Below are positions 2,841 to 34,143 of a DNA stretch of 64,000 bases, one piece after another; position 1 is the stretch's first letter, and every line of letters starts with the position of its first letter. The stretch lies in the NCBI GenBank assembly GCA_027604505.1, contig JADIIX010000049.1, positions 91,388-155,387 of the forward strand, given 5' to 3'. A program made the translations under genes and the position numbers. Source of the stretch: Gonapodya sp. JEL0774. Lineage: Eukaryota; Monoblepharomycota; Monoblepharidomycetes; Monoblepharidales; Gonapodyaceae. Under the pieces are notes generated by a model that saw nothing but the letters and a program-made list of their open reading frames with translations, was not told the origin of the DNA and searched no databases.

Positions 2841-5800
2841 ATGGCTTCGATGTCAACCGCTACTGGCTCTACCACCCAGACAGCTCTGGAATCCGCTCCT
2901 CCTGCTACTGCAGCGCCAGGTTGGCGGGTATCAGACCAGGAAATCGCTGATTTCGAGCGTAGATTCGCGGAGGGTCCGCAGACAGTGTTTCTCGCAGAAG
3001 CGCAGCTGGAAATCTGTCCTGGTGAGTCTCCACAAAGTTGAATGAATTTCGCGGGCGGTGCCGTCTCCCAAAACGGACAGCCTTGGCAAGCACTCAACAC
3101 CAAAGGCGAACAGCACTTCCAGTGCATTCAAATACTTCGCGCTAATCCACTGGCATCACATCTGTGTCTTGATTGCGTGTTGATCGTGTCTCGTTCCAAT
3201 CTCGTTAAAGATATCTCTGGTTCCACCGCGGGCACATGCCTTCAAGTTGAGAAACTTGCCGCGAAGGCTATCGCAGGACGCAATACGAGGGCAGGAGTTG
3301 TTCCATGGCATAGCACTACACTACCTCGTATACCCATCACGGATGTAGACACGCTCAGGGCTATGGGAGGCACCAGTCCCCAATACTTACTGAAACAAAA
3401 TGAGTCCTTGCAATTCATTAAGGCGTCTAGTGAGTCATCCTGTGACTATCAAGTTTGCAACATATTGACTCGACCACGCGTCTCCTACAGATGTCTGGGC
3501 GCTTTTTACTGACGGTGAAATTGGCGTCGCTGATGTCAATGAACTCGCCTCGCTTGTCGCTTCGGAAAATATGGGACACTTGCCTGTCATTGTCGCTGTG
3601 TTTGGTCCGGGAAGGGAGACGCCCAGCGCGACAAATATTTCAGTAGGAATATCTCTGTTCGCAGGTTTGTCATACTCTACTCTTCCCCGGCTAAGCACTC
3701 GGCTCTCAACAGAAAACGGAATCATGCTTCTTTGTTTTTTACGTTCCGCGTATTTCAACCTCCAGCATGCGAACACGTCTTGTTCCTCTACCAAAGGGTG
3801 GACATCGCCCTCCCCGAACCGTACATACTTCAAAGCAAAGGTTGCTTTGCCGCTCTCGGCACCGTCGCCACTCTCGACAGCACTATATCTTGGACTGATC
3901 TCCCCAGAATAAGCTGGGAGGCCGTCTCCGCCACCGAGCTCCCCATCACCCACGCGGGCATGCCTGGAGTAACGCGCCTGTCACCCACACTCACCATTCG
4001 AGTAGCTCAGTTGCTCGAAACCCATCTACCGACTGAGACTCTTCTCGAGATTATCAGTGACGAAGAGGTGCTTAGGAATCTTATACTGCTCTGCACCACA
4101 AGGGGTCTAGGGGCAAGACTGAGAACATGGCTCGGCTCGCACATGATGGATGCAGCTGAGGTGGTGAAGCCAGAAGACGTAGCTGGTGCGGCGGTGGCGA
4201 TGCAGAGACTCATGGCAGCAAGGGAGAGGAACGCCCCGGTGCAAGTGAGTGGTTGTCCAGCTCGAAGGACCTGACTCTATCGGGTAACAACCTCTTCTTA
4301 GGAATTACTGTCCCTCCAAGCCGCTCTCAGATCCGCCCACGCCACCAACGATGCTCATTACCGCACTCAATACGAGACTCTCGCTCGGGCACGAACTTCG
4401 GAAATCCGTCGGATCAATTCTGCTATTAACGCTGCCATGGCGCAACTGGGAGAAACAGAGCGTGCTGGATACTCTGCTGAGGTTTTGGGAACCAGATTGT
4501 CCAACCGAGCGATGCGGGCAACCAAGGTTGGTGTGTGAACCATGATATGCTGAGTGCCGCCGAACTCGTTTGACAAGTTGAGCGCATAGGTAACAGAATC
4601 TGACACTGTGGATAATCTCATGAGGATTGTCGAGGGTGATGTTGAGGACGCCACTGCTGCCTTTAGAGGCGATTGCACAATATGCTGTGAGCAGAATGTC
4701 CTGGTATGTTGTGTTCACTGTCACAACGGGTGTAGTGCCCTGAGGGGTGCGTTGTTGCTGACCATTTTATAAACTGAATAGCTTTCCCTGACCATGAAGA
4801 GAGTGTTGCCAGAGAGTGAGTTGCCGTCGTAGAACAAAGGCGGGGGTAAATATCAACCAACTCAACCCTCTCACAGACACGGAGGTTAATACTGCTGATT
4901 TCGCCCTCGATTTTCCGCTTGCAGTCGGATCACGAGTGAGTTTGCACATCTCCCTCTCTTCTGGATATTGGATAGGTGATGGCCATTCCCTCAGACGCAC
5001 AATGACATTATCGCCTCGCAAGTGGTTTGCTCAGGGTGTGCAGATCAAGTTGTGAGCACATATGGAACGACACTGGTGAGAGGACTTGACTGAAACTTCC
5101 CATGCAGTTGCTGTGAATGTTTCTATATATGGCGCCTCTCACCCCTCAGTTCCGTGAGAACGCGACCATTACCATTCCGCTTGCCTCTATCAAGTGAGAA
5201 CCAGCGATGTTTGAAGCAAAGTTCTTATTAATTTTGAAATGCTCGAATCACCCGACTGCTGAACAGAGATAATACTAACCGTGACATACTTAGCACTCGC
5301 CTTGCGATCGCGCTCACAAATGGTCTCAAGACTGGCAATGTATTCCAGCTAATGATTTCCGTACTGGACAACACCCTTTCAACCAAACTCTGGGCGCGTG
5401 TGGAACCGGGCAGCGACGATGCAGAGAACAGGGTTCGACGGGCGGCACTGGAGTGGTTTCGGGACGACCTCGCGACCCATGTCCGTACAAAAAATAACTT
5501 CCAAGAGACGGGCGAGTGGACAACCCTTCCGTTTGCAATCCAATGGGCGGTAGAAGATGCAGTGACCAATGGCTATCGCGCGTGGCTGTACCGGTACCCC
5601 GTCGAAGGCTTTGCGGTCTTGATCAAATTGGCGAGGAATCCGAAGTTTGCTGTTACGATGCCGCTTGACGGAGGAGTAAACTTTGTGCACAAGAGATTAC
5701 TTTTGGGGATTGTTGATTGGTAATGTCTCTGTACTGCGAATTCTCTATCCAACAGCCTGTCCACTCACTTTTCCCCTCGATAGGTACATGCGAGAGACAT

Positions 5801-12196: not shown

Positions 12197-15100
12197 ATGC
12201 CCTCGGATATCAGAAGCCATTCTTTCCATCGCGTGGTCATCGTCGGTCTGGGCATGGTCGGCCTCAAGATGTGCGAGTCGCTCATCTCCATCGACGAACT
12301 GGCCGGCGCTTCTTCCTCGGAGTCATTCCAAATCACCGCTTTCTCGGAAGAACCCAATGCAGCTTACAATCGCATGCTACTCACCTCCTATTTTGAACAT
12401 GGCTCCGTCGAAGCGCTGACGATGAAACCTGCCAGCTGGTTTGTGGGAAAGGGCATTAAAGTGGTCAAAAGGAGAGTCACAAAGATTGATAGAGCAAGGA
12501 AGGTGGTCACTGACACTGCTGGAGCGGAAACAGAAGTATGTGTGGAGGAGCGGTGACTCGATGACGCAAATCTCTCACCACTCGCATCTAATCGTCCAGT
12601 ACGATACACTTATAATTGCAACCGGATCTAACTCCTTTGTCCCTCCCATCAAAAATGTTGAAGCCCCCGGTGTCTTCGTCTACCGAACCATCGAGGACCT
12701 TGACAACATGATTGCCTACGCCAAATCCTGCAAGCAAGCGGCTGTTCTTGGCGGAGGTTGGCTCATTGAATATTCACAAAAACTGAATCTCGTTTTGTTA
12801 TAACCCGAGAACATCTACCGATAGGCCTTCTCGGTCTTGAAGCCGCCGCCGCCCTGATGCACCTCAATCTCCAAACTACCGTCGTTGAGCGAAATCCGCA
12901 CGCGCTTGCCCGCCAACTTGATGCCGAAGGTGCTAGCGTGATGATGCAAGAGCTTGACCGATTAGGACTCAACGTGGCAGTGCGCAAGGACACCAAACAG
13001 ATTCTGACAAACGCAGAGGGACGCGTAAGAGGACTTGAGTTCGTGCACAAGCAGGGAACTCACAGCGGAGACGATGTTTTAGAATGTCAGATGGTTGTGG
13101 TGAGCGTCGGTATCGCATCGAGGGATGAGTTGAGCAAGGAGTGCGGGTTGGAGGTATGTTAGCAACACATGATGACAGCACTCAGCGAATCGGGAGATCT
13201 CATGCCACGAAACTCCGACATATCCAATAGACTCATGCAAGGGGTGGTACCGTTACAGATGACGAGCTCCGCACTTCGGACCCCTCCATCTTCGCCGTCG
13301 GAGAGGCTGTTTCTCATCGGGGAATTGTATACGGGCTTGGTGAGTAATACTGGCGTTTGTGTCCATACCATCAAAATCTTACTACAATCTCATGCAACAT
13401 CCTCTTCTTCCAGTTCAACCTGGCTATGAAATGGCCCAAGTGGTTGCATCTGTGCTTGCAAAGGAACGTCACATGCGCTGCCACGCTGGGTCCGCCCTCT
13501 CGGCACCGGCCACCAAGCGATTCTTGGGGAGTGACATGTCTACAAAACTCAAACTCGCGGGTGTGCACGTGGCGAGCTTCGGAGACTACTTTGCGGACAG
13601 GGACGGTTACAAGGGGGTGCCCGCGGCGGATGTCGTAACGGCGGTAGCCAAGGATCCGTTCGGTAAGCCTTGAATGGCAATCGATTTTGGGCGTTGGATG
13701 GGGAGAGTGGTTTTCTTACGGTCATGTTCTTCGCACAGGGTGCTCCTACAAAAAGCTCCTCTTCTCCAAGGATGGCAAACAGTTGTACGGTGGAATCGTA
13801 CGTTTTTCTCTCTAAGTAATCTATTGTTGCTCTTCAGTACATCGACTGACTCCGTTATCTGATCGTCCAAAGCTCGTGGGCGATGCCACAACGGAGTACA
13901 CCAAGCTACACACTTTGGCTCGCAGTGCAGCACCGCTCAAAGTCTCACCCTCGGAGCTACTAGGTCGCAAGAAGGGTGGTGATACAGAAGAGGAGGATGT
14001 GAGGTTTTCTGATCCGACCCTGGGGGCCATTTTCTGCCCCTCTCTAACTTCACACATGCAACATGTACACCTCCCAGGATCTCCCCGACGAAGCTCAAAT
14101 TTGCTCTTGTAACAACGTCACCAAGAAAGCTCTCGTTGAGGCTGTTAAGGCCGGTAACAAGACCCTCCCCGCACTCAAATCCTGCACGCAGGCCGGTTTG
14201 GGCTGCGGCGGATGTGTTCCCGCGGTGACATCGATCATGAACGCGGAGATAAAGAAAATGGGAGGAACAGTGAAAAACTCTTTATGCGAGCACTTTGACT
14301 TTTCGAGGAAGGAGGTTGGTCTTGTTGTGCACAAAATATTGACGTGGTCTGATCAATGGTTCTGGTACGTTTCAGCTATTCGAGATCGTTAAAATAACAA
14401 AAACGAAGACATTTTGGGACCTTTTGAAGACTCATGGCCGAGGTAACGGTTGTGAGGTCAGTCAATTCTCAAGTGTTCGTTTATGAACTTGCTCGTGCTC
14501 ACTCTATTGTTCTCGGCCTGACAAGGTCTGCAAACCAGCCGTCGCCTCAATTCTCGCCTCTCTTCACAACGAAAATGTCATTGCTAAGGCGCACATGCCG
14601 CTACAAGACACCAACGATAGATTCCTCGCCAACATTCAGCGAGGTGGTTCGTTTTCGGTTGTGCCTAGGATCGCCGGGGGCGAGATCACTCCGGAGGGTC
14701 TCATTGCTATCGGGCAGGTTGCCAAAGAGTTTGGACTCTACACCAAAATAACTGGTGGACAGAGGATCGGTGGGTTGTCAACGGGGAGGGCTTCCGTGTT
14801 TTGCGGAAACCTGACCACTTCCGGTTCTTCAAGACATGTTTGGTGCGCAAAAGGAGGACCTCCCGACAATCTGGGAAAAACTCATTGCAGCTGGCTTCGA
14901 ATCTGGCCACGCGTACGGAAAATCCCTGCGTACCGTCAAATCATGTGTAGGCTCCTCGTGGTGTCGGTATGGTATGAGGGACTCTGCTCGTTTTGCGATA
15001 GAGGTGGAGAACCGATATAAGGGAGTTCGGTCACCTCACAAGCTAAAGGGCGGTGTGAGTGGGTGTGTGCGAGAGTGTGCTGAGGCTCAAAGCAAGGACT

Positions 15101-16353
15101 TCGGCCTTATTGCTACGGAGAAGGGATGGAATGTGTAGGTTATCAGATGCTTCCGTTGCCTCCATGAAAGTGGTTTTCTGAATGTACTCCACTATTTCAT
15201 TTTATTTGTGCAGCTACGTAGGCGGCAACGGCGGATCCACACCGAAACACGCTCTCCTTCTGGCATCGGAAGTGCCCGAAGAACTCGTTATCAAATATCT
15301 CGATCGGTACCTCATGTACTATATTGCTACAGCCGACAAGCTCACCCGGACTGCGCGGTGGATCGAGAAGCTAGAAGGGGGAATTAAGCACTTGCAAGAT
15401 GTCGTGATTCACGACAGCCTGGGGATTGCAGTGGAGCTGGAGGAGCAGATGGCGCACCTCGTCAGCACATACAAAGAGTGAGTCGTACTTTGAGGGGAAC
15501 CGAAGGAAGCGCAGAGCATTATGTTTGCTCACTGATCGGCCGTGACATCTTCCAGCGAATGGGCGGAAGTCGTTAACAACCCGGAACTTCGAAGGCAGTT
15601 TAAGCAATTTGTGAACTCGGAAGAGACGCAGGAGAGCATCGTCATGCTCAAGAAGCGTGGTCAGATCGAGCCGGCACCGTGGCCCAAGAATGGAACCGGT
15701 GCGGGACCGTCAAAGGAAGACACGGAGGCGCTCATCCGTGAGAGTGGTGACCAATTGGAATGGGTGGATGTCGGTAAGGTGGTGAGTTCCGTGACTCACT
15801 GAGACCAAACTAAGTTTGCACCTTATGAGCACGTCGGCTTGATTGTAGGCCGATTTCGTTGACGATACAGGTCGCACGGTGAAGTACGGTGACACTCAAC
15901 TCGCAGTATTCCGGACATTGTCCGGCGACGGATCCATTCAGTGGTATGCTTCTCAAAATGTGAGTTTCGTGAATATGTGAAGATCTATTCAAGGACTATT
16001 GTGACACAAGCACAATCGACTCGTAGATGTGTCCCCACAAACGGTCCCTCGTTTTGTCCCAGGGTCTCCTCGGCGACGCCAATGGTGTTCCCAAGGTTGC
16101 TTGTCCCTTCCACAAAAAGACATTCGCACTCACTACTGGCGAAGGTATCGACGATCCCAGCTTCTCGATCAGCACCTTCGAAGTTCGCATTGCGGGCGGG
16201 GACAGGATCGAAGTGAAGCTACCCAGCATCAAAACCCTGGATCGGGCATTAGGTACGAGTGCATGGAAAGTTGGCAAAGAGAGACGGCGAGCGAAAAAGA
16301 TTGAGGGAGGGTGCGGTGGAGCATGCGGAGGAGGGGAGGAGCTAGCGTGGTGA
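12197..16353 (+). CDS. niiA: Assimilatory nitrite reductase [NAD(P)H]
   Basis: This enzyme reduces nitrite to ammonium in the cytosol with six electrons from NAD(P)H. The multi-exon gene shows the full NirB-NirD fused fungal layout. An N-terminal FAD domain (VVIVGLGMVGLKMCE) is followed by an NAD(P)H domain (AAVLGGG joined across an intron to LLGLEAAAAL). Two BFD-type [2Fe-2S] modules follow (CSCNNVTKKALVEAV with GLGCGGC, then GNGCEVCKPAV near 14450). Next is a sulfite/nitrite reductase half-domain, then the siroheme-[4Fe-4S] cysteines in SCVGSSWCRYG and GGVSGCVRECAEAQ. A C-terminal Rieske-like NirD domain carries MCPHKRS and ACPFHKKTF. The tail ends in a Cys/Gly cluster (GGCGGACGGGEE). All expected cofactor residues seem present. 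The nitrate reductase partner lies 13 kb downstream on the opposite strand. Confidence 0.95.
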
Positions 16354-18783: not shown

Positions 18784-20745
18784 TCATAGCTTCACCACTT
18801 GCTCTTGCTGATACCCCATCTTCTTCAGAACTCCGCCCAACGGCCCGGGGGAATCGTCGGGGGCGCGGGGACCTGCCAGGTGCGCCACCATGCTGGATAG
18901 GCAGGGAGAAGGACGAAATCGCGTGAGGAAGAAGGGTTTCACAGGGACGAGAAGGATGGATTACAGGGCGGGGGGAACAATCGACTGATTCAGTGCGACG
19001 TACCGTTCCGGCCCACATACAAGCACCACACCATTTTTGCCTGTACCTGGTGGTGGTAGCCCAGCCTTCTTCACCATCGCCTCGTCCACTCTGCCTACCA
19101 AACCGCGCCACTGTGCCTTGCCGGCATCATCCACCGTACTGTCCACCGTGTATGTGACTCTGAACCTATTGGGATACATGGCTGCCAGCGAGTCGAGTTC
19201 GTTTTTGTAGAGAATTGATTCGGGGGAGCGGGATGCGTACAGGAGTGTGACTTTGGGTTGGACGTTGTATAGGGAGGAAGTCGGAGGAGAGGTTGACAAG
19301 AGATGAGGGAGGAGTTGGATGAGCGGTGTGATGCCAGTGCCGGCGGCAATCTGGAAGAGGAATCGGCGAGGAACAGTGAGGTGGTGCGTAGCGAGTGGGG
19401 TGAGTTGTGTTGAGGACAAATTAGTCCGCCCGTCAAATTAGTGCGCCCGTCTCAGCTTCAGTGGTCTCAAAATCCCTCTCGCCCGCACTGAGTCGTGTAT
19501 CCAATACTCACAAATCCAATCTCTTTCTGACTCCCAACTTCCCACCCTACGAACAGCCCCCTCATGTCGACCTTGGCTCCCACTTTCCTCCCAACCAGCC
19601 ACGGTGTCACACCTCCTTCGTCATACCTTTTGACGACCAAGGCAAATTCGGTCGGTGTGATGAAGAGCGGGGTGTAGAAGCGGAGTAGTTGCGCAGACGG
19701 CTCGCGGAGGTGGAGGTGGATCAACGCGAGGGGGGGAAGGTCACGAGGAGAAGGCTGCAGGAAGGGGTGGGTGGGTGAAGGAGTGGAGGGCCTGGATGGG
19801 GTTATTGGGGACATGGAAGAGCAGTGAGGTAGGTCCTGTTGCTCTCGGGTGGTTGAGCGTGGAAAGGGAATTGCGTTCGTTCCTCTCTGTGTTTCACGGA
19901 CTCTCTCACACCCACCTGGAACTTTCTTGACTACCCGTCACTGACGGAAACGCTGTTGGTGCGAGACCCCCCACGAGGGTCTTTGCTGTTGCGCTCTTTT
20001 CCTTTTCGGCAAGGAGGTCCGCCTCCCTCGAGACGGGGATCTCTCTCCTAAACTTGAGTTTGTATACATGTGGAGCGATAAGTTGCTTTTCGATCAACTC
20101 AAAGGCCGTGAATTTGCGTGTGTCGAATACAGGTGGTGGTTCGTAGACCGTCAAGTAGTGATGTACTTGGTACGCGAGGAGCGCTGCAGATGCTATGAGG
20201 CCAATAACAAGTGCCGGGGTCGAAGACTTGTCTATGGTCGGAAATGTATGTCGGGCTTGGGGTGGTGCAAAATTTGACGGTGGTGGCAGTGAGAAGGAAT
20301 TGTAATCGTGGTTACCGTTCTGGCGTGGAAAAGAAAACGGTGGGAGCGGCGACGGGGGGTCAGTCCGGTGCAGACTCAGTGGTCCCACAAGCGGGGGAAG
20401 GTGCGCAGCCTGTTCGCTCCGGGAAGGTCGCGGTGGAGAAGATGTCGGGGAATCGTGTTCGTTGGGGGTATGATGTGGACCGGACAAGGACGAAAAAGAA
20501 CGCGAAGAATACAACCATCGCGGATGCATTTGTTGCAAAGTCCACGCAGGATGTGTCGATCGCTTCTCTCGCCCTCCTTGTAGCGGTGTCCGAGGGCCAA
20601 CCACGATATTCCCACTTGCAAATCCTCTCGCTGAAGATATCGAGTCCGTTCCTCGGAAAATTCCCCGTCTAATCCTTGAAACTGCTGCCATCACGACGGT
20701 GTTTCGATGCTTGATAGGCGATGATCCATCGAGGTGAAGAGACAC
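18784..20745 (-). CDS. Cyc2-like mitochondrial flavoprotein, cytochrome b5 reductase family
   Basis: This family includes yeast Cyc2, an inner-membrane FAD protein that supports haem attachment to cytochrome c. The N-terminus is Arg/Ser-rich and acid-poor, as in a mitochondrial presequence; the second Met (20691, MAAVSRIRRGIFRG) may be the true start. One transmembrane segment follows (ALVIGLIASAALLAYQ). Then comes the FAD-binding beta-barrel (FELIEKQLIAPHVYKLKFR; RFYTPLFITPTEFALVVKRY replaces the canonical RxYTP flavin motif with RFYTP). The NAD-binding half carries IAAGTGITPLIQLL and VLVCGPERYV. After an intron the tail LGGVLKKMGYQQEQVVKL ends at 18784, as in the family. An ordinary cytochrome b5 reductase is the alternative. 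Expression shares a spacer with the hypothetical gene at 21105. Confidence 0.75.
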
Positions 20746-21104
20746 TCGAAGTGTCTAAACGGGTGGTGGCACATGCGTTCGTTGCCCAGACAGGACCAAC
20801 GGGCAAACACTGCATATTATTACACATTGTGAATCTGTGCATGGCCTACTTATCGGCCAAGCCAGCAATCCCGGTTGTGAAGTCCGGTGCTTCCTTAGTT
20901 GGTGACCAGCAAGCCAACGAGAAGCAGTATAATATTGAGTTCGCATGCAAGGCGCGACAAATTTCATGTATACAATAGAGGAAATTGTCGAGGCAGCATC
21001 TGGGACGCCCCATTCCTCCCAGATCCTCTATACAACGTGCTTCATCGTTTTGAACCCAAGCCGGACAATTCAAGAATAATATATTTACCCCGCAACCCAC
21101 ATAT
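20746..21104. other. Divergent spacer
   Basis: This 359-base stretch lies between divergent start codons of the Cyc2-like gene and the hypothetical gene. It is AT-rich toward the right end (AATAATATATTTACC near 21078). No coding sequence is convincing. Confidence 0.45.
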
Positions 21105-27826: not shown

Positions 27827-29577
27827 ATGGTGTCCTCCACAAATTCAGCACCATCACCAGTAGACGTTTCCACCATTTCGTCCCTCGCCAATCGCGCCTT
27901 GCAGTCCAACGATGCTCAGGATTTCGCTGCTGCCGAAGCAGAAAGCACCAGAATTCTGCTCGCTTCTTCCCTCAACAAATTAGAAAAGCAAATCAAGGAC
28001 CCTGATGTAAAGCCTGAGCGATTAGCAGCGGCGATTGCTTTCATTTCACAGGTGAGTGCGTGTGGGGTGGGTGGTACGTAAGGAATAGCTTCCGAATATC
28101 CCACGACCATGAGTCGAGCCTCCAGCCCCTGCGAAGTATTAGAATTCTTTCGCCTGGTCTTACGATTGATATCTGGCTTATTCACCTCGTTACAGGCTAC
28201 ACATGCGTCTGCTCGGATGCAACCCGAACATGTTTCGCGCTATTCTTCCCTGTTAATTGCAGCCATCCATCGGTATCCGGATCATCCACGACTCGTAGAT
28301 GCTGCAGCTGGTGAGTCCAAGTTGTGGACTCAGCATTCCGGACCGGACAGGGTTGTTTGTGAAGTAGATGCTTGATGCAATCTCGAGATTGGTAAACCGG
28401 TCCGTGTCCAACCACCTCCTTTCCCCGACAGCGTCTCTCTCCTCTCTCCTTTTCCTCTCCCCTTCGCTTGCCACGCCCGAACTCACCGCGACCCTCACCC
28501 AACTTCTCGAAACTCACGCATCCGACCCTCATGCCTCACTTCACCTCTCCATGGCCCTCAATGCCGCCTCCTCCTCTTCCTCTTCACTCGCGTCGGTGTC
28601 CGACCAAACCGCAGCAACCTCAAATTCGACGACGACGACCATAACACCCCGGATAGACGTCGTCGCCCGTGCCCTCGATTCCATCGAATCCCTCCTTCGT
28701 GGTGAGAACAACTCAATCTCACTCGAACAAGACGAGCTCGCTCAACGTGTCGCAGAGGCCGAGTCGGTGCTGGTGGATTCTCGGAACCGAGACGTCGTGA
28801 TGAAACAGTACCGAACTCGGGTCTTCAACGTGTACTTGGACATATTCACAGCGCTAGGGTGGGGGCCGAAGAGAGAAGGCGCCAAGGGGGACAAAAGCGA
28901 AGAGAATGCGACGTCAATGATACCAGAGGTTCCGATGTCTCAGAAGAAGCCAGTCACCGGGGGAGACGTCGCTCACCATCTGGTAGCTGCCGCGAATACC
29001 AACACCACCACGACAGTGAATCCCGAACACGCCCCCGCTGATGCGTCAGCCACACCCGCCATCGGTGACACTGTCACCGACGACGATTGGGATCCTTCCA
29101 CTGCTGTCCGACTCGACCCGTTCTTGTTACGAGCGTACGAAGGTAACATCTGCTCGTTCTCCTCACTGTTTTACACACCTCTCACTCAAATCACCGTACG
29201 CTGCACTCACCCCTCGCCTTTAGACTTTTCCAACCTCTTCCACTGCTCGAACCCCGCTTGCCTCCGCGTCGCCCGGCACAGTTTGGAAGAGTTCAAATCG
29301 TGTGGTGGGTGTGGTGTGGTGTTCTACTGTGGGAAAGAATGTGAGTACGCTGTAGAGGAGAGCCAGAAAGTGCCCAATGAACTGACATGAAGCGCTGACG
29401 TGCGGACATCCTCTGGACCGACATCGGGGTTCAACAAAGGCCAAAAAGGTGAGATGATATGGAGTGGTGCACGTGTTTGAGACATCCCAAACGAGTGGTA
29501 ACACGTTTAACGCTACGTTTTGTCTATATTCAACAGCCGACTGGAAAGAACATAAACCGGTGTGCAAGAAACGATGA
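27827..29577 (+). CDS. MYND zinc-finger protein
   Basis: MYND fingers mediate protein-protein contacts, often in chromatin regulators. Start MVSSTNSAPSPVDVST at 27827; the first exon is helical, and a second joins at about 28190 (ATHASARMQPEHVSRYSSLL). The middle is Ser/Thr-rich. The C-terminus holds the finger: FHCSNPACLRV, then EFKSCGGCGVVFYCGKEC. After an intron it closes with ADWKEHKPVCKKR and the stop at 29577, giving the full C-x4-C, C-x2-C, C-x3-C and H-x3-C pattern. There is no SET domain, so it is not an obvious methyltransferase. The N-terminal ~350 residues are unassigned. It ends 245 bases from the convergent nitrate reductase. Confidence 0.8.
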
Positions 29578-29822
29578 GCTCCCAGGAACGACCGAGTGGC
29601 ATCCGTAATTTGAACGGACCACCCATTTGCGCATCGTTCAACACTAATATGACTTTGTTATGTACTTTATCGAATACAGTGATGCATAGCTCTTGATTTG
29701 CAATTACCCAGCCCTCCCGGAATGTGAGAAATATGAGAACATGTGTACACGACGAACCACCAGCGAATTACTCCACTCTCCCAGCGCATCTAGGATCTAT
29801 CTAGGATGTACGAAATTGGCTT

Positions 29823-32309
29823 TCACAAGATGTACCCGATCGCGAATTTGTCCTTCATCGCCTTCGCAGCGGACCCGTGAATGGCGTGGAAGTCCTCCGA
29901 CGCATCCTGTCCAGCGACGATCATGATGGATTTCAGGCCTGGAAGGATGACGACAGAGGTGTTCAGTCGTTGAGGGGCGGGGACACTTTGGATCCACCAA
30001 AGAACCAAACACTGGCAAAACACTCACCACCAGGATGTCGCTTCAGAAACTTCGTGCAATCCAACACCATCCCATCGATCACAATCCAGCAGTCTGTTTC
30101 GGACTTGTGCGACGCCACGTCGGCCATAGTCATGGGGTTCAGACCTTCCTTGCGTTTTGCGGGTGTGTTGACCAGGACGGAAGGTTTGGTCGCAGCGTCG
30201 GCTGCGGCTTTGAGTCGGGGCATCCAGCCGGCTTCTTTAGATTCACCAATGTTGGTTGGGTGCTGCCATATGTAAGTTGAGGTGGTCGGGTTATGGAATA
30301 GTTTCACTCGGTACCACTGACAAGGTTACAACGAGTGGTTGCCAGTGAGCTCTGAGAACCTACGGCAATTGACATAGCGAGATTGGCAACTCCAACTCAC
30401 ATTATTCGACATCATGCCAAGTAAGTTCCACGTTTGATCGCGCGGTTGTGTGTTTTGGCTCGCATCCCAGCATCTGACCAGCACCTCCGCAACCTGAACA
30501 GGCGTACCATCTGTGCTCTGAGTGATTGTTGTGTCCACGAGTACATCTATTTCTGCTTCCCATAAAAACCAGCACCAGAATTTCGACCCATGACGCGGCG
30601 CTCCATCATTCGACCCGTGGCGCAGCGAAGGTGCGAGAATCCACGTCTGGCCGTCATCCACAGACAACTCCACCCGTATAATCCGCCGTCCGCCACCAGT
30701 GTAAGCGTATCCTTTGACAGGTAACCGTATCGTGAGAGGATTCGGGGCTGATGTTTCGATGGCGACGACTCTGTGGTGTGCAGGTGAGGTGATGACCGAG
30801 TTGATGTTACGTTCGTTGATAATGAATTCGGGTCGGCGCCACCAGTTGACTTTCTTCATCCCCGAACCGTTGGGGTCAGGTGTGAGTGTGGTGGAGAGGG
30901 CGACGGCGGCGGAGGTGACGTTGGGTGGGAGTACGCGGTTGTCTTCGAAGTGATAAGTTGAGTCGGATTCCTGCGGGTTATCACACAAGGTTTTGGGTGA
31001 GAGCTTGATACAATCAATCGCGAAGTTCCTTTGAGGTACTCACAGAGTCGCTGACGGTGATTTTAGAGAGCCATTTGACCATTCTTCCGCCAATCCAGCC
31101 CGGAATGATTACACGAAGTGGGTAGCCGTGATCTGGTGGAAGACGCTGTTGGAGCGTCAGTGTCTCATGCACGATCTTATGGGGATGCACAATCAAACAG
31201 GGTAGACGTACCTCTCCATTCATCTCATACGCAAGTAAGATATCTGATGTGTGATCAAGTGCCATCTCTAAAGGTACAGTGGTGCCGTAGTGACCTTTGG
31301 GCAGGTTGTCGGACCCCGAGAAATTCACGTATCGCGGAACCGCGATCGTGCCATCTTCGCGTACGCCGGACTTTGGACCACCACAAAGGTTCAGAATGTG
31401 CGAGAGAGGAACACCTGTCCAGACGGCGGTAGAAACAGCTGCAGGGCCCCAGCTTTTCCAAATTATATGCATGCAAGTGTTGAAGAATCATAGCAGGTGA
31501 CGGTGACAACAGCGGGAGGACCACACCTGAAGCCTTGTGAGTTTTTTGTGACATTTTGTTCATGCCTTCGGTTACCCGCGCATGTCAAAGTGACTTGGAA
31601 GGTTGCTCTGGGCATGCGAGCAATCTCATCCATGGAGAACGTACGAGGTTTCCGGACGAGGCTGTGTGTGTGCGAAAAGGAGCAATAAAAGCTGATAAGA
31701 TCACTCATGTATGCAGTAAAGTGTGCAAAGAGAATTTACCCGTCCAGCGATACATTGAAGTCTGCCCATTCAAGATTGGGTACCGGGCCATGGTTGCGCA
31801 CGTAGTGCAAGGAATTCGGCGTCAGACCTTTACTCTTCTCGGCAGCAGCCATTAGCGTGGTGATAGGTGCCTGGAGATGGTCAGCACGAAAATTAGATGC
31901 ACTCTTACCAGACGACCCCGTTTCGAACTCACCTCTGAATTGAAAGGATGGCGACCAGTCAAGCGGATCATACTAGGATGTCGAGGAACCCAATTATCCT
32001 AGAGGTACAAAGAAAACATCGAAGATTGTCCGTTTCGAATGGGGGATAGCGACTCACTGGTGTGTCCACATCTTTCGTGTCGACACCGCCTTCCCATTGA
32101 CCAAATCCCTCTGGCAGTTCAATGACTTTCTCTCCACCTTTTCCTTGATCACTCTTCTGACTGAGGGATATTGATGAGAGCGTTGACACCAAAGTAACTC
32201 CAGCGATCCCAGATATTGCACCAAGCGCGGCGGCGACCGCCCACAAAGGTTGCGCCGTCTGAGACGAATCGACCAAGGATAGCGATGCTATGAGCGGGGC
32301 AATCGACAT
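29823..32309 (-). CDS. Nitrate reductase ending after the cytochrome b5 domain (no FAD/NAD(P)H module)
   Basis: Nitrate reductase reduces nitrate to nitrite. The molybdopterin domain is canonical: DNWVPRHPSMIRLTGRHPF, LHYVRNHGPVPNLEW, the Mo-ligand Cys in LTCAGNRRHEQN, and WGPAAVSTAVWTGVPL. PPDHGYPLRVIIPGWIGGR follows. The dimerisation domain follows (NERNINSVITSPAHHRVV, KGYAYTGGGRRIIRVELS, QTWNLLGMM). Then comes a b5 domain with both haem His residues (MADVASHKSETDCWIVIDG, KRHPGG, FHAIHGSAAK). The frame stops at KFAIGYIL, where family members normally continue with a ~270-residue FAD/NAD(P)H reductase. Only 245 bases separate this stop from the convergent MYND gene, so the module is not hidden downstream. 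The N-terminus has a hydrophobic stretch (PLWAVAAALGAISGIAG) unusual for this soluble enzyme. About nine introns. Confidence 0.85.
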
Positions 32310-32730
32310 TATGCGTAAATCTGGACTGTGAGAATTCTTGTCTGAGCATTTAAGAGAAATGATCGGTGGTGGGGTTTGATGGCATCAACTCGACCGAGTT
32401 GTTCCTCGTTTAGGAACATTTCCAACACCCACGACTCACAGCGACAAACAGAAATCGTGGACCCATTCCCAATATCCGGTAGTAAGGAATTGGCTTTCTG
32501 CGCTCGTCATCGCCTTTGCGAGCGAATTAAAAGACCAGAAACCAATTACTCGGAACTTCAATGTTCCTGCCGGCGAGGCGGTCCACAACTCAAGGCACCT
32601 CTCCCTAAATCTGGATTCCCCAAGAGCCATGACTCAGATTGCAGAAAGTTGACTAAGCTTGTCCTTCGTGCGGCCAGAACTTCACATTCAGTCGCGTGCG
32701 GTGATAATATATTACATTGTTGAATATATG
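32310..32730. other. Spacer upstream of nitrate reductase
   Basis: This 421-base spacer lies between the nitrate reductase start and the BCS1 stop, both on the minus strand. It should hold the nitrate reductase promoter. A TGATAA (HGATAR) match is at about 32702. No coding sequence is convincing. Confidence 0.4.
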
Positions 32731-34143
32731 TCATGTTCGGCGTTCTATTTGGAGTTTTGCTGTCCCCAAGTGGGATGCTCGCTCCACAGCTAAATCCGCA
32801 CTATCGCGGTTCTCCACGAAATGTCCTTGCAGCATTGCCGTGCTCACATGGCGATCCGCAAGGCTTTGCACGAACCTCTCACACAGCTTTTCATCTGCGT
32901 TCGCGAAGAATCTCCGAAACATTCCACGTATTTGATGTGGAGTCGCCCACCCGAATTCGTGCCGCACGTCCACACGGCCAGGTCGGATTAGGGCCGGATC
33001 TAATTGGGATGCGTGGTTGGTGGTCATGAAAATAATGCGCTCTTCCGAGGAAGCAACACCGTCGAGAGCATTTAGCAGGCCAGAAAAAGTGACCATGGAG
33101 GAGAAGCTATCACCGCATCGGTTGGTTTCAAACCAATACTGTCAACAACTAAAATCACATATATTCCTTCAACCGTCTACTCACCCCTGCTTGTCCGTCT
33201 GCTCTCGCTTTGAAAACGCCGCATCAATATCCTCGAGCAATATTAAGCTGCGATGCGGCGCATGGCTAAGGAGGTGGTTCAGGCGGTCGTCAGTAAGGCC
33301 GCGTTCTGCGAGGTTGAGGACACAGATATTGTACTCTAGGTGGCCAGCCAGAGCCAGAATGAACGATGTTTTACCAGAGCCAGGAACACCGTACAGTAGG
33401 TACCCCCTTCGATAGGGAATACCTTGAGGAACGTGAGAAGAGATTTACGGTCCTGATGTTAGAAAACGGCTGTGTGACGCACCTCTGTCGTAGTACCATC
33501 TGCCATTGTCAATAAATCCTCTGACGTCATTCAATATCTTTTCCGTGACTCCATCGTCCAAAACCACGGAATCGAGTGGCCGTCTTCGTCTCGGCTGGCC
33601 GAATGGCCTCCAATCAGGCCCATAGCTCGAGTAAATCACCGTTTTACCCTCCTCCTTCTCCAACGCTAATACCCTTGATTCCTCGAGAAGCTCAGCGAAT
33701 AACTTCCTGTCCCGTGTCAGCGTCGTGAGCGTCACAGTCTCCCATGGAGCAGCGTTCGTTAGGTCCAACATCTGCCGCTCCCGCGTTCTCTCCACCATGA
33801 ACCATGCGCCCCGATAACGAAAAAAGTGAGTACCTGGGCCTGCAACGAGCCCAAACTCAGTCTTGGTACTTCCGTTATCGTGCCGGGTGTGCTGAGTTTG
33901 GACGCTCAAAGTAGGGTTCCATGCTGAAGCGGTAGGCGATGAAGTCATCCAATTCAGCACCCACGGGTATGCTTTGTCTTTGGATGGAATTTCCAAGGTA
34001 ACCAAGAGCCGCCGACGGGCGATGCTAGCTCCCTGAACGAATCCTTTGCGAAGTACGGCGAGCGCGGTGCCCACGCCGAAAAGGCCGAATCCGGCAGTGA
34101 AGTAAGGGTTCCCTTCGAAAGCTGCAAAAATTGTTTCGCTCAT
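32731..34143 (-). CDS. BCS1: Bcs1-type mitochondrial AAA ATPase
   Basis: Bcs1 in the inner mitochondrial membrane translocates and inserts the Rieske iron-sulfur protein into respiratory complex III. The chosen start (34143, [18 protein letters not shown]) precedes a hydrophobic segment and a basic region ([16 protein letters not shown]), as in the family. The Bcs1 N-terminal domain follows ([28 protein letters not shown]). The AAA domain carries Walker A (GVPGSGKTS), Walker B ([11 protein letters not shown]), sensor 1 ([14 protein letters not shown]) and the arginine-finger region ([16 protein letters not shown]). The C-terminus ends [17 protein letters not shown]. About 420 residues matches the family. 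Three or four short introns, at about 33420-33490, 33110-33190 and nearby. An in-frame Met exists 46 codons upstream but its extension is not Bcs1-like. Confidence 0.9.

What the first reader, a model, noticed from the sequence alone, without database searches (positions are those of the whole stretch)
29823..32309. Nitrate reductase without its flavin module, with an N-terminal hydrophobic segment
The molybdopterin, dimerisation and b5 haem domains are family-typical, but the frame stops right after the b5 domain. Canonical eukaryotic nitrate reductases continue into a ~270-residue FAD/NAD(P)H domain. Only 245 bases remain before the convergent MYND gene, so the module is not nearby. The N-terminus has a ~17-25-residue hydrophobic stretch (LWAVAAALGAISGIAG and on). 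Together this suggests a membrane-associated enzyme fed electrons in trans, for example by a separate cytochrome b5 reductase. The Cyc2-like flavoprotein at 18.8-20.7 kb is the same flavin-domain superfamily, but its presequence argues for mitochondria, so that link is speculative.
Basis: partly seen in the sequence, partly recalled or inferred. Interest (0 to 1): 0.75.

Follow-up and report, generated by a model that had tools for sequence, protein, structure and literature searches.

The report
Flavin-less nitrate reductase with membrane anchor
A zoosporic fungus carries an unbroken nitrate-reductase-type gene that lacks the usual flavin/NAD(P)H power module and begins with a hydrophobic segment predicted to anchor it in a membrane, so the enzyme likely draws its electrons from a separate protein; many related flavin-less enzymes end instead in what look like peroxisome address tags.

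Summary
The window (Gonapodya sp. JEL0774) encodes a nine-exon, 633-residue protein: hydrophobic N-terminus, Mo-cofactor domain, dimerisation domain, b5 haem domain, stop. No FAD/NAD module was found in the next 2.45 kb. G. prolifera, Cladochytrium and two Boothiomyces share the layout in one supported clade, so it is no assembly error. Mo-ligand Cys, both haem His and nitrate-reductase-type active-site residues are present. A nitrite reductase gene lies 13.5 kb away; the only FAD-bearing Mo relative found in the genome has broken frames.

Flavin-less nitrate reductases recur across eukaryotes. Of 38 with a complete-looking C-terminus, 16 end in a PTS1-like (peroxisomal) tripeptide, against 0 of 160 FAD-bearing rows. 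Gonapodya lacks the tag; only its two species, of 65 rows scored, have a membrane-grade N-terminal segment. The b5 haem edge, acidic in FAD-bearing rows (mean charge -1.4), is +0.7 in tagged rows and +3 in Gonapodya.

Best reading: a membrane-anchored nitrate reductase fed in trans by a separate flavoprotein. Membrane, partner and activity are predicted, not shown; the basic haem edge makes an ordinary cytochrome b5 reductase less certain as donor. New variant of a known kind.

The parts
29823..32309 (-). Flavin-less nitrate-reductase-type gene, nine exons: 32309-32058, 31998-31933, 31870-31740, 31661-31527, 31452-31212, 31145-31044, 30970-30401, 30316-30028, 29938-29823; 633 aa
   Evidence: Spliced model, splice sites, public model HDU93_007425 which skips exon 31661-31527
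32175..32246 (-). Hydrophobic N-terminal segment, residues 22-45, predicted membrane anchor
   Evidence: Best 19-residue KD mean 1.92; 1.78 in G. prolifera; no other of 65 scored rows above 1.6. Structure model of the G. prolifera protein has pLDDT below 50 over residues 1-61
30956..31792 (-). Mo-cofactor domain, residues 133-314 (with introns), Mo-ligand Cys177 at 31580-31582
   Evidence: Pfam PF00174 192.6 bits; invariant Cys
30299..30823 (-). Dimerisation domain, residues 359-505 (with intron)
   Evidence: Pfam PF03404 125.4 bits
29829..30130 (-). Cytochrome b5 haem domain, residues 562-632 (with intron); the protein ends one residue later
   Evidence: Pfam PF00173 75 bits; both haem His present; haem-edge charge +3
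12197..16353 (+). Nitrite reductase (NirB/NirD-type) gene, 15 exons, 1052 aa, 13.5 kb from the nitrate reductase
   Evidence: Spliced model; public model P0121 TIGR02374 917.8 bits, cut-off 578
18961..20754 (-). Cyc2-like flavoprotein with a hydrophobic segment, one candidate electron donor (approximate limits, read as frames)
   Evidence: PF00175 2.5e-20 and sub-threshold PF00970 on frame pieces; nearest solved chains b5 reductase 1 and nitrate reductase flavin part; no link to the gene tested

Best explanation
This unbroken gene encodes a nitrate-reductase-type enzyme that ends right after its haem domain, and it likely sits on a membrane by its N-terminal segment with the catalytic part in the cytosol, where a separate flavoprotein would pass NAD(P)H electrons to the b5 haem and on to molybdenum to turn nitrate into nitrite. 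Shown by sequence: domain order, missing flavin module, cofactor ligands, nitrate-reductase-type active-site residues, inheritance of the layout in two Gonapodya species and other chytrids, and a nitrite reductase gene in the neighbourhood. Inferred: the membrane and its sidedness, the activity, the donor. The clade probably descends from flavin-less enzymes with a PTS1-like end, and Gonapodya would have exchanged that address for a membrane anchor.
For: Layout and its inheritance; no flavin exon downstream; ligands and active-site residues; hydrophobic segment limited to the two Gonapodya among 65 scored rows and absent from 98 full-length enzymes; nitrite reductase in the window, and both proteins recorded on a contig of 234,325 bases in G. 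prolifera (same contig inferred from the length); NRT2-like gene on C153; FAD-bearing C20 relative with broken frames; possible donors present: anchored MCR1-like reductase on C15, Cyc2-like gene in the window.
Against: The b5 haem edge is +3, not acidic, which fits a cytochrome b5 reductase poorly. Flanking charge gives only weak support for a cytosolic catalytic part: net -1 before and 0 after the segment here, -1 and +2 in G. prolifera. AlphaFold gives the N-terminus no confidence. The C153 transporter piece is below the curated cut-off (106.9 against 311.7 bits). NR and NiR are 13.5 kb and about seven gene tags apart, not a tight cluster. No expression or activity data.
Confidence: 0.55

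Rival explanations
1. The enzyme runs electrons outward: like sulfite oxidase, it oxidises a substrate at molybdenum and reduces an acceptor through b5, so no flavin is needed.
For: Same fold family; best sulfite oxidase matches at E 1e-65; no flavin in any sulfite oxidase; plant sulfite oxidase is peroxisomal through SNL (PMC10574614 passage), like the tagged relatives.
Against: Asn320 and Met495 follow nitrate reductase, not sulfite oxidase (residue meaning recalled); nearest structure by sequence and fold is nitrate reductase 2bih; the genome has a separate b5-first sulfite oxidase on C4; b5 is C-terminal as in nitrate reductase; nitrite reductase nearby.
Confidence: 0.12
2. A relic or side paralogue: the assimilatory enzyme is the FAD-bearing copy on C20 and the window gene has lost its job.
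For: A FAD-bearing relative exists on C20; its frame breaks could be sequencing errors.
Against: The window gene is unbroken with all ligands and is conserved between the two Gonapodya (70% over the whole length; 78-80% over aligned columns) nearly as well as the nitrite reductase (82%). C20 changes frame at 3380/3384 and 4256/4282 and has CNENRR at the Mo site.
Confidence: 0.08
3. The donor is the flavin part of the nitrite reductase itself, a split version of the ichthyosporean chimera (nitrate reductase domains plus nitrite reductase flavin domains).
For: CS-pNR shows this pairing as a fusion (PMC6400420 passages); NiR lies in the same neighbourhood; the Globomyces model runs from b5 into a NiR start.
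Against: No direct evidence; gene neighbours are common for the pathway, also for FAD-bearing enzymes (Ambispora and Irineochytrium NR and NiR have equal contig lengths).
Confidence: 0.08

Closest known systems
Canonical eukaryotic nitrate reductase (Mo, dimer, b5, FAD, NAD domains; e.g. 2bih fragment)
   Same: Mo, dimerisation and b5 domains in the same order; same ligands and active-site residues; best sequence and fold match
   Different: No FAD/NAD module; hydrophobic N-terminus; basic b5 haem edge
CS-pNR, chimeric putative nitrate reductase of Creolimax and Sphaeroforma (PMC6400420)
   Same: First three nitrate reductase domains kept, own flavin module lost (passages)
   Different: CS-pNR carries nitrite reductase flavin domains instead; here nothing follows the b5
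Sulfite oxidase (animal and plant)
   Same: Same Mo and dimer fold, no flavin; the plant form is peroxisomal through a PTS1, as the tagged flavin-less relatives would be
   Different: b5 first or absent; different active-site residues
mARC with cytochrome b5 and b5 reductase
   Same: Mo enzyme fed by separate b5 and reductase proteins (PMC6321594 abstract and passages); works-like comparison only
   Different: Unrelated MOSC fold (recalled); b5 not fused

Membership tests
Eukaryotic nitrate reductase | Mo-cofactor and dimerisation domains with C-terminal b5 | tested here: met
   Pfam PF00174, PF03404, PF00173 in that order
Eukaryotic nitrate reductase | Active-site residues of nitrate type (Asn of DNRVLP, Met of GMMNN; significance recalled) | tested here: met
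   Asn320 in 120 of 120, Met495 in 118 of 120 aligned rows; aligned to 2bih
Eukaryotic nitrate reductase | C-terminal FAD/NAD(P)H module | tested here: not met
   Absent from the protein and from 2.45 kb downstream
Eukaryotic nitrate reductase | Reduces nitrate with NAD(P)H | not testable with these tools
   Needs enzyme assay
Sulfite oxidase | Sulfite-oxidase-type residues at the two diagnostic positions | tested here: not met
   Nitrate-type residues instead
Sulfite oxidase | b5 domain N-terminal (animal type) or absent (plant type) | tested here: not met
   b5 at residues 562-632 of 633
CS-pNR chimera | Pyridine nucleotide-disulphide oxidoreductase domain after b5 | tested here: not met
   No such domain in the protein
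PTS1-tagged flavin-less group | Peroxisomal C-terminal tripeptide | tested here: not met
   Window protein ends YIL, G. prolifera IAS, Cladochytrium RSG; other complete rows of the clade (P0005, P0018, P0031, P0261) have it; Globomyces end unknown
Membrane-anchored protein | N-terminal transmembrane helix | tested here: inconclusive
   Hydropathy passes 1.6 in both Gonapodya; structure model unconfident there

The most novel reading that the evidence does not exclude
Eukaryotic nitrate reductase has repeatedly been split from its flavin module, and the flavin-less halves form a recurrent class with its own cell biology: one branch is sent into peroxisomes by a PTS1 tag and turns its b5 haem face from acidic to neutral or basic to take electrons from a partner other than b5 reductase, and Gonapodya's branch has swapped the tag for a membrane anchor while becoming the organism's only intact nitrate reductase.
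Probability: 0.45. Interest if true: 0.85.

Novelty: new variant of a known kind. Interest (0 to 1): 0.72.

Why it matters
Textbook eukaryotic nitrate reductase is one chain that carries its own NAD(P)H supply. If flavin-less forms work, nitrate reduction in some zoosporic and arbuscular mycorrhizal fungi depends on an unknown redox partner and may be placed on a membrane or inside peroxisomes, which changes where nitrite (and possibly nitric oxide) is made. The PTS1-like ends and the change of haem-face charge give direct, cheap tests, and the recurrent losses are natural experiments on how a multidomain redox enzyme survives losing a module.

Tried and rejected
Downstream flavin exon: sought with five flavin modules, none found. 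Assembly error: rejected by G. prolifera and the other chytrids. Gene-model truncation as the source of all flavin-less relatives: unlikely for the tagged ones, because 16 of 38 end in a PTS1-like tripeptide, where composition predicts 0.0087 per sequence (about 0.3 in 38), and 0 of 160 FAD-bearing rows do. The 38 are what remained of 60 flavin-less candidates after 22 were dropped (no HPGG, end too early, or long odd tail). The 16 include two near-identical Gigaspora rows (P0012, P0040) and Basidiobolus P0277, which runs into the second hinge and may be mis-spliced. Truncation is not excluded for every untagged row; plant rows such as P0244, P0245, P0256 and P0259 look like faulty models.

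Rows used: both searches listed only their best 120 hits (of 1012 and 1526). The 87-row tree and the charge counts used 35 of the 60 flavin-less candidates and 52 of the 160 FAD-bearing rows, chosen by me.

Results against my reading: the charge difference is large in plain counts (Mann-Whitney p 1.4e-8, 52 against 19 rows), but the rows are related. For tagged against FAD-bearing rows only 4 supported independent pairs exist: whole-b5 charge goes the same way in 3.7 and the other way in 0.0 (median p 0.125), haem-edge charge in 2.2 and 0.2 (median p 0.5). Over all flavin-less rows there is no association at the haem edge (2.0 against 1.4 of 6 pairs, p 1). Fourteen untagged flavin-less rows have a mean edge of -1.43 (range -3 to +2), so flavin loss alone does not cause the change.

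The structure prediction (P0002 with 25 others, mean pLDDT 70.4) says nothing about the N-terminus. A weak Moco match on C5 (28.6 bits) lies near two b5 matches; tblastn gave b5 matches and one weak Moco match (E 0.043); not pursued. Whether the Cyc2-like gene stays beside NR in G. prolifera was not tested. Rfam found nothing at 29400-32800.

Literature: ten searches. Seven were aimed at flavin-less, peroxisomal, Gonapodya or mycorrhizal nitrate reductase: searches returned no paper; one review and two Chattonella papers, all three seen in the listing only. One search (nitrate reductase with PTS1) gave 14 papers; two were read in passages, the rest in the listing. No statement of a flavin-less or peroxisomal nitrate reductase was met; subscription journals are not held, so nothing wider is claimed.

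Full report
What is there. The window is contig C49 of a 25.0-Mb, 381-contig genome; the best protein match names it Gonapodya sp. JEL0774, a monoblepharid fungus. On the minus strand at 32309-29823 nine exons give a 633-residue protein with GT..AG introns of 59-89 bases. It has Mo-cofactor, dimerisation and b5 domains and no other Pfam match. The public model HDU93_007425 (588 aa) lacks the 31661-31527 exon, which carries the Mo-ligand Cys.

Is the loss of the flavin module real? Yes. The last 300 residues of five FAD-bearing enzymes find nothing better than E 0.18 in the 2.45 kb downstream. G. prolifera (P0002), Cladochytrium (P0003), two Boothiomyces (P0005, P0031), Globomyces (P0015) and an unnamed sequence (P0018) have no flavin domain either and form one clade with it (bootstrap/SH-aLRT 99/98 in the 71-row tree; SH-aLRT 96 with P0261 added in the 87-row quick tree). 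On the 87-row tree the flavin-less state needs 10 changes, at least 6 of them forced by well-supported branches; on the 71-row tree 7 and 5. Supported flavin-less groups of two or more rows are the chytrid clade, two in Glomeromycotina (8 rows, 99; 2 rows, 100), one with Ostreobium, Bryopsis and three unnamed rows (98), the pair P0306/P0308 (100) and four mostly unnamed rows (99). Funneliformis caledonium has both kinds (P0014, P0019); the genera Entrophospora and Acaulospora do too, though the flavin-less Acaulospora row is marked partial.

Is it an intact enzyme of the nitrate type? Cys177, Arg131, Arg181, Asn320 and both haem His are the same in 120 of 120 aligned rows; Met495 in 118. Asn320 and Met495 align with the Asn of YFDNRVLP and the Met of TSMLNN in 2bih, which I recall as N272 and M427, held to mark nitrate reductase against sulfite oxidase; the chicken sulfite oxidase triple mutant 3r19, titled as of altered activity and substrate affinity, has Asn and Met at the same places in the alignment. 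A separate gene with b5 first lies on C4, the expected sulfite oxidase.

Pathway context. A nitrite reductase gene of 15 exons lies at 12197-16353 on the plus strand (TIGR02374 917.8 bits for the public model P0121), 13.5 kb from the nitrate reductase stop and seven locus tags away (HDU93_007418 and _007425). In G. prolifera both proteins are recorded on a contig of 234,325 bases, so the neighbourhood is, by inference, shared. The Globomyces model runs from the b5 into the start of a nitrite reductase, either a fusion or merged neighbours. A NarK/NRT2-like gene is on C153 (106.9 bits on one reading frame, below the cut-off of 311.7). The only FAD-bearing relative with Mo domains found in the genome, on C20, changes frame between 3380 and about 3384 and between 4256 and 4282 of the reversed L020, gaps too short for introns, and reads CNENRR where others read CAGNRR: probably a decayed copy, though sequencing error is not excluded.

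The N-terminus. A hydrophobic segment (KD 1.92) is kept in G. prolifera (1.78). Of the 87 rows, 65 have at least 19 residues there and only these two pass 1.6; none of 98 full-length enzymes does. The Cladochytrium model starts inside the Mo domain, so its N-terminus is unknown. No Lys or Arg precedes residue 52, which argues against a mitochondrial presequence. Flanking charges (-1 before, 0 after; -1 and +2 in G. prolifera) only weakly favour a cytosolic catalytic part by the positive-inside rule (recalled). AlphaFold gives residues 1-61 of the G. prolifera protein pLDDT under 50; the core matches 2bih best.

The unexpected part. Flavin-less relatives with a complete-looking C-terminus often end in a PTS1-like tripeptide (consensus recalled): SKL, AKL, AKI, AKM, ANL, PKL, SKI or SRL in 16 of 38, nine of the strict [SAC][KRH][LM] form; the pattern occurs in 0 of 160 FAD-bearing rows and 0 of 120 nitrite reductases. 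Composition predicts 0.0087 per sequence. Among 14 rows from named fungi with a complete end, window protein included, 11 carry it; the three that do not are the two Gonapodya and Cladochytrium. Since P0018, P0261 and both Boothiomyces carry it in the same clade, the tag may be ancestral there and lost in Gonapodya (inference). Plant sulfite oxidase is peroxisomal through SNL (PMC10574614, passage). A haptophyte form (Diacronema, P0336) instead has a hydrophobic C-terminal tail (KD 2.03).

The haem face. Summed charge of the two residues before and the two after HPGG: mean -1.37 in 52 FAD-bearing rows, +0.73 in 15 tagged rows, +3 in 4 of 4 of the two Gonapodya, Cladochytrium and Globomyces, -1.43 in 14 other flavin-less rows; whole b5 net charge -7.5, -1.3, -2.0 and -7.9. 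This suggests a changed electron partner in the tagged and Gonapodya forms and an unchanged one in the ulvophyte forms, but independent comparisons are too few for a firm test.

Mechanism. Most likely: NAD(P)H to a separate flavoprotein, to the b5 haem, to molybdenum, to nitrate, at a membrane, with nitrite passed on to the nitrite reductase. All steps after the sequence are inferred. Candidate donors include an MCR1-like reductase with a hydrophobic N-terminal stretch on C15 (name by recollection) and the Cyc2-like flavoprotein in the window, whose NAD part is closest to b5 reductase 1 and nitrate reductase among solved chains. The basic haem edge is the main reason for doubt about a b5 reductase. 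mARC shows that a Mo enzyme can be fed through b5 by a separate reductase (PMC6321594, abstract and passages), and CS-pNR that the first three nitrate reductase domains can be joined to another flavin source (PMC6400420, passages).

Verdict. PMC6400420 also reports a nitrate reductase in Chromosphaera perkinsii without other pathway genes (passage); the flavin-less row P0330 (Nk52, recalled as that species) would fit a role outside assimilation.

Noticed in passing
window 12197-16353 (+): The nitrite reductase is closest to G. prolifera (82%) and Zopfochytrium (70%), then about 55% or less; the three form a clade (100) on a long stem (0.67). A separately inherited or transferred NiR lineage between Monoblepharomycota and Chytridiomycota is possible.
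   Followed up: partly
window 31527-31661 (-): The public protein HDU93_007425 skips this exon, which carries the Mo-ligand Cys and the CAGNRR motif.
   Followed up: yes
P0015 (Globomyces pollinis-pini): The model runs from the flavin-less nitrate reductase into the start of a nitrite reductase; fusion or merged neighbours could not be told apart.
   Followed up: no
P0262, P0264, P0267, P0268, P0270: A flavin-less clade with Ostreobium and Bryopsis that ends right after b5, has no PTS1-like end and keeps a strongly acidic b5 (net -10 to -13).
   Followed up: partly
P0336 (Diacronema lutheri): Flavin-less nitrate reductase with a hydrophobic C-terminal tail, possibly tail-anchored like free cytochrome b5.
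   Followed up: no
L034 (C79) and L035 (C157): Genes that join a b5-like domain to a FAD-binding domain in the same genome, C79 with hydrophobic stretches upstream.
   Followed up: no
L022 (C5:173000-182500): A weak Moco-domain match (28.6 bits) near two b5 matches on the same strand; identity unknown.
   Followed up: no
P0132: A 1816-residue nitrite reductase relative, far longer than usual, with no extra Pfam domain that explains the length.
   Followed up: no
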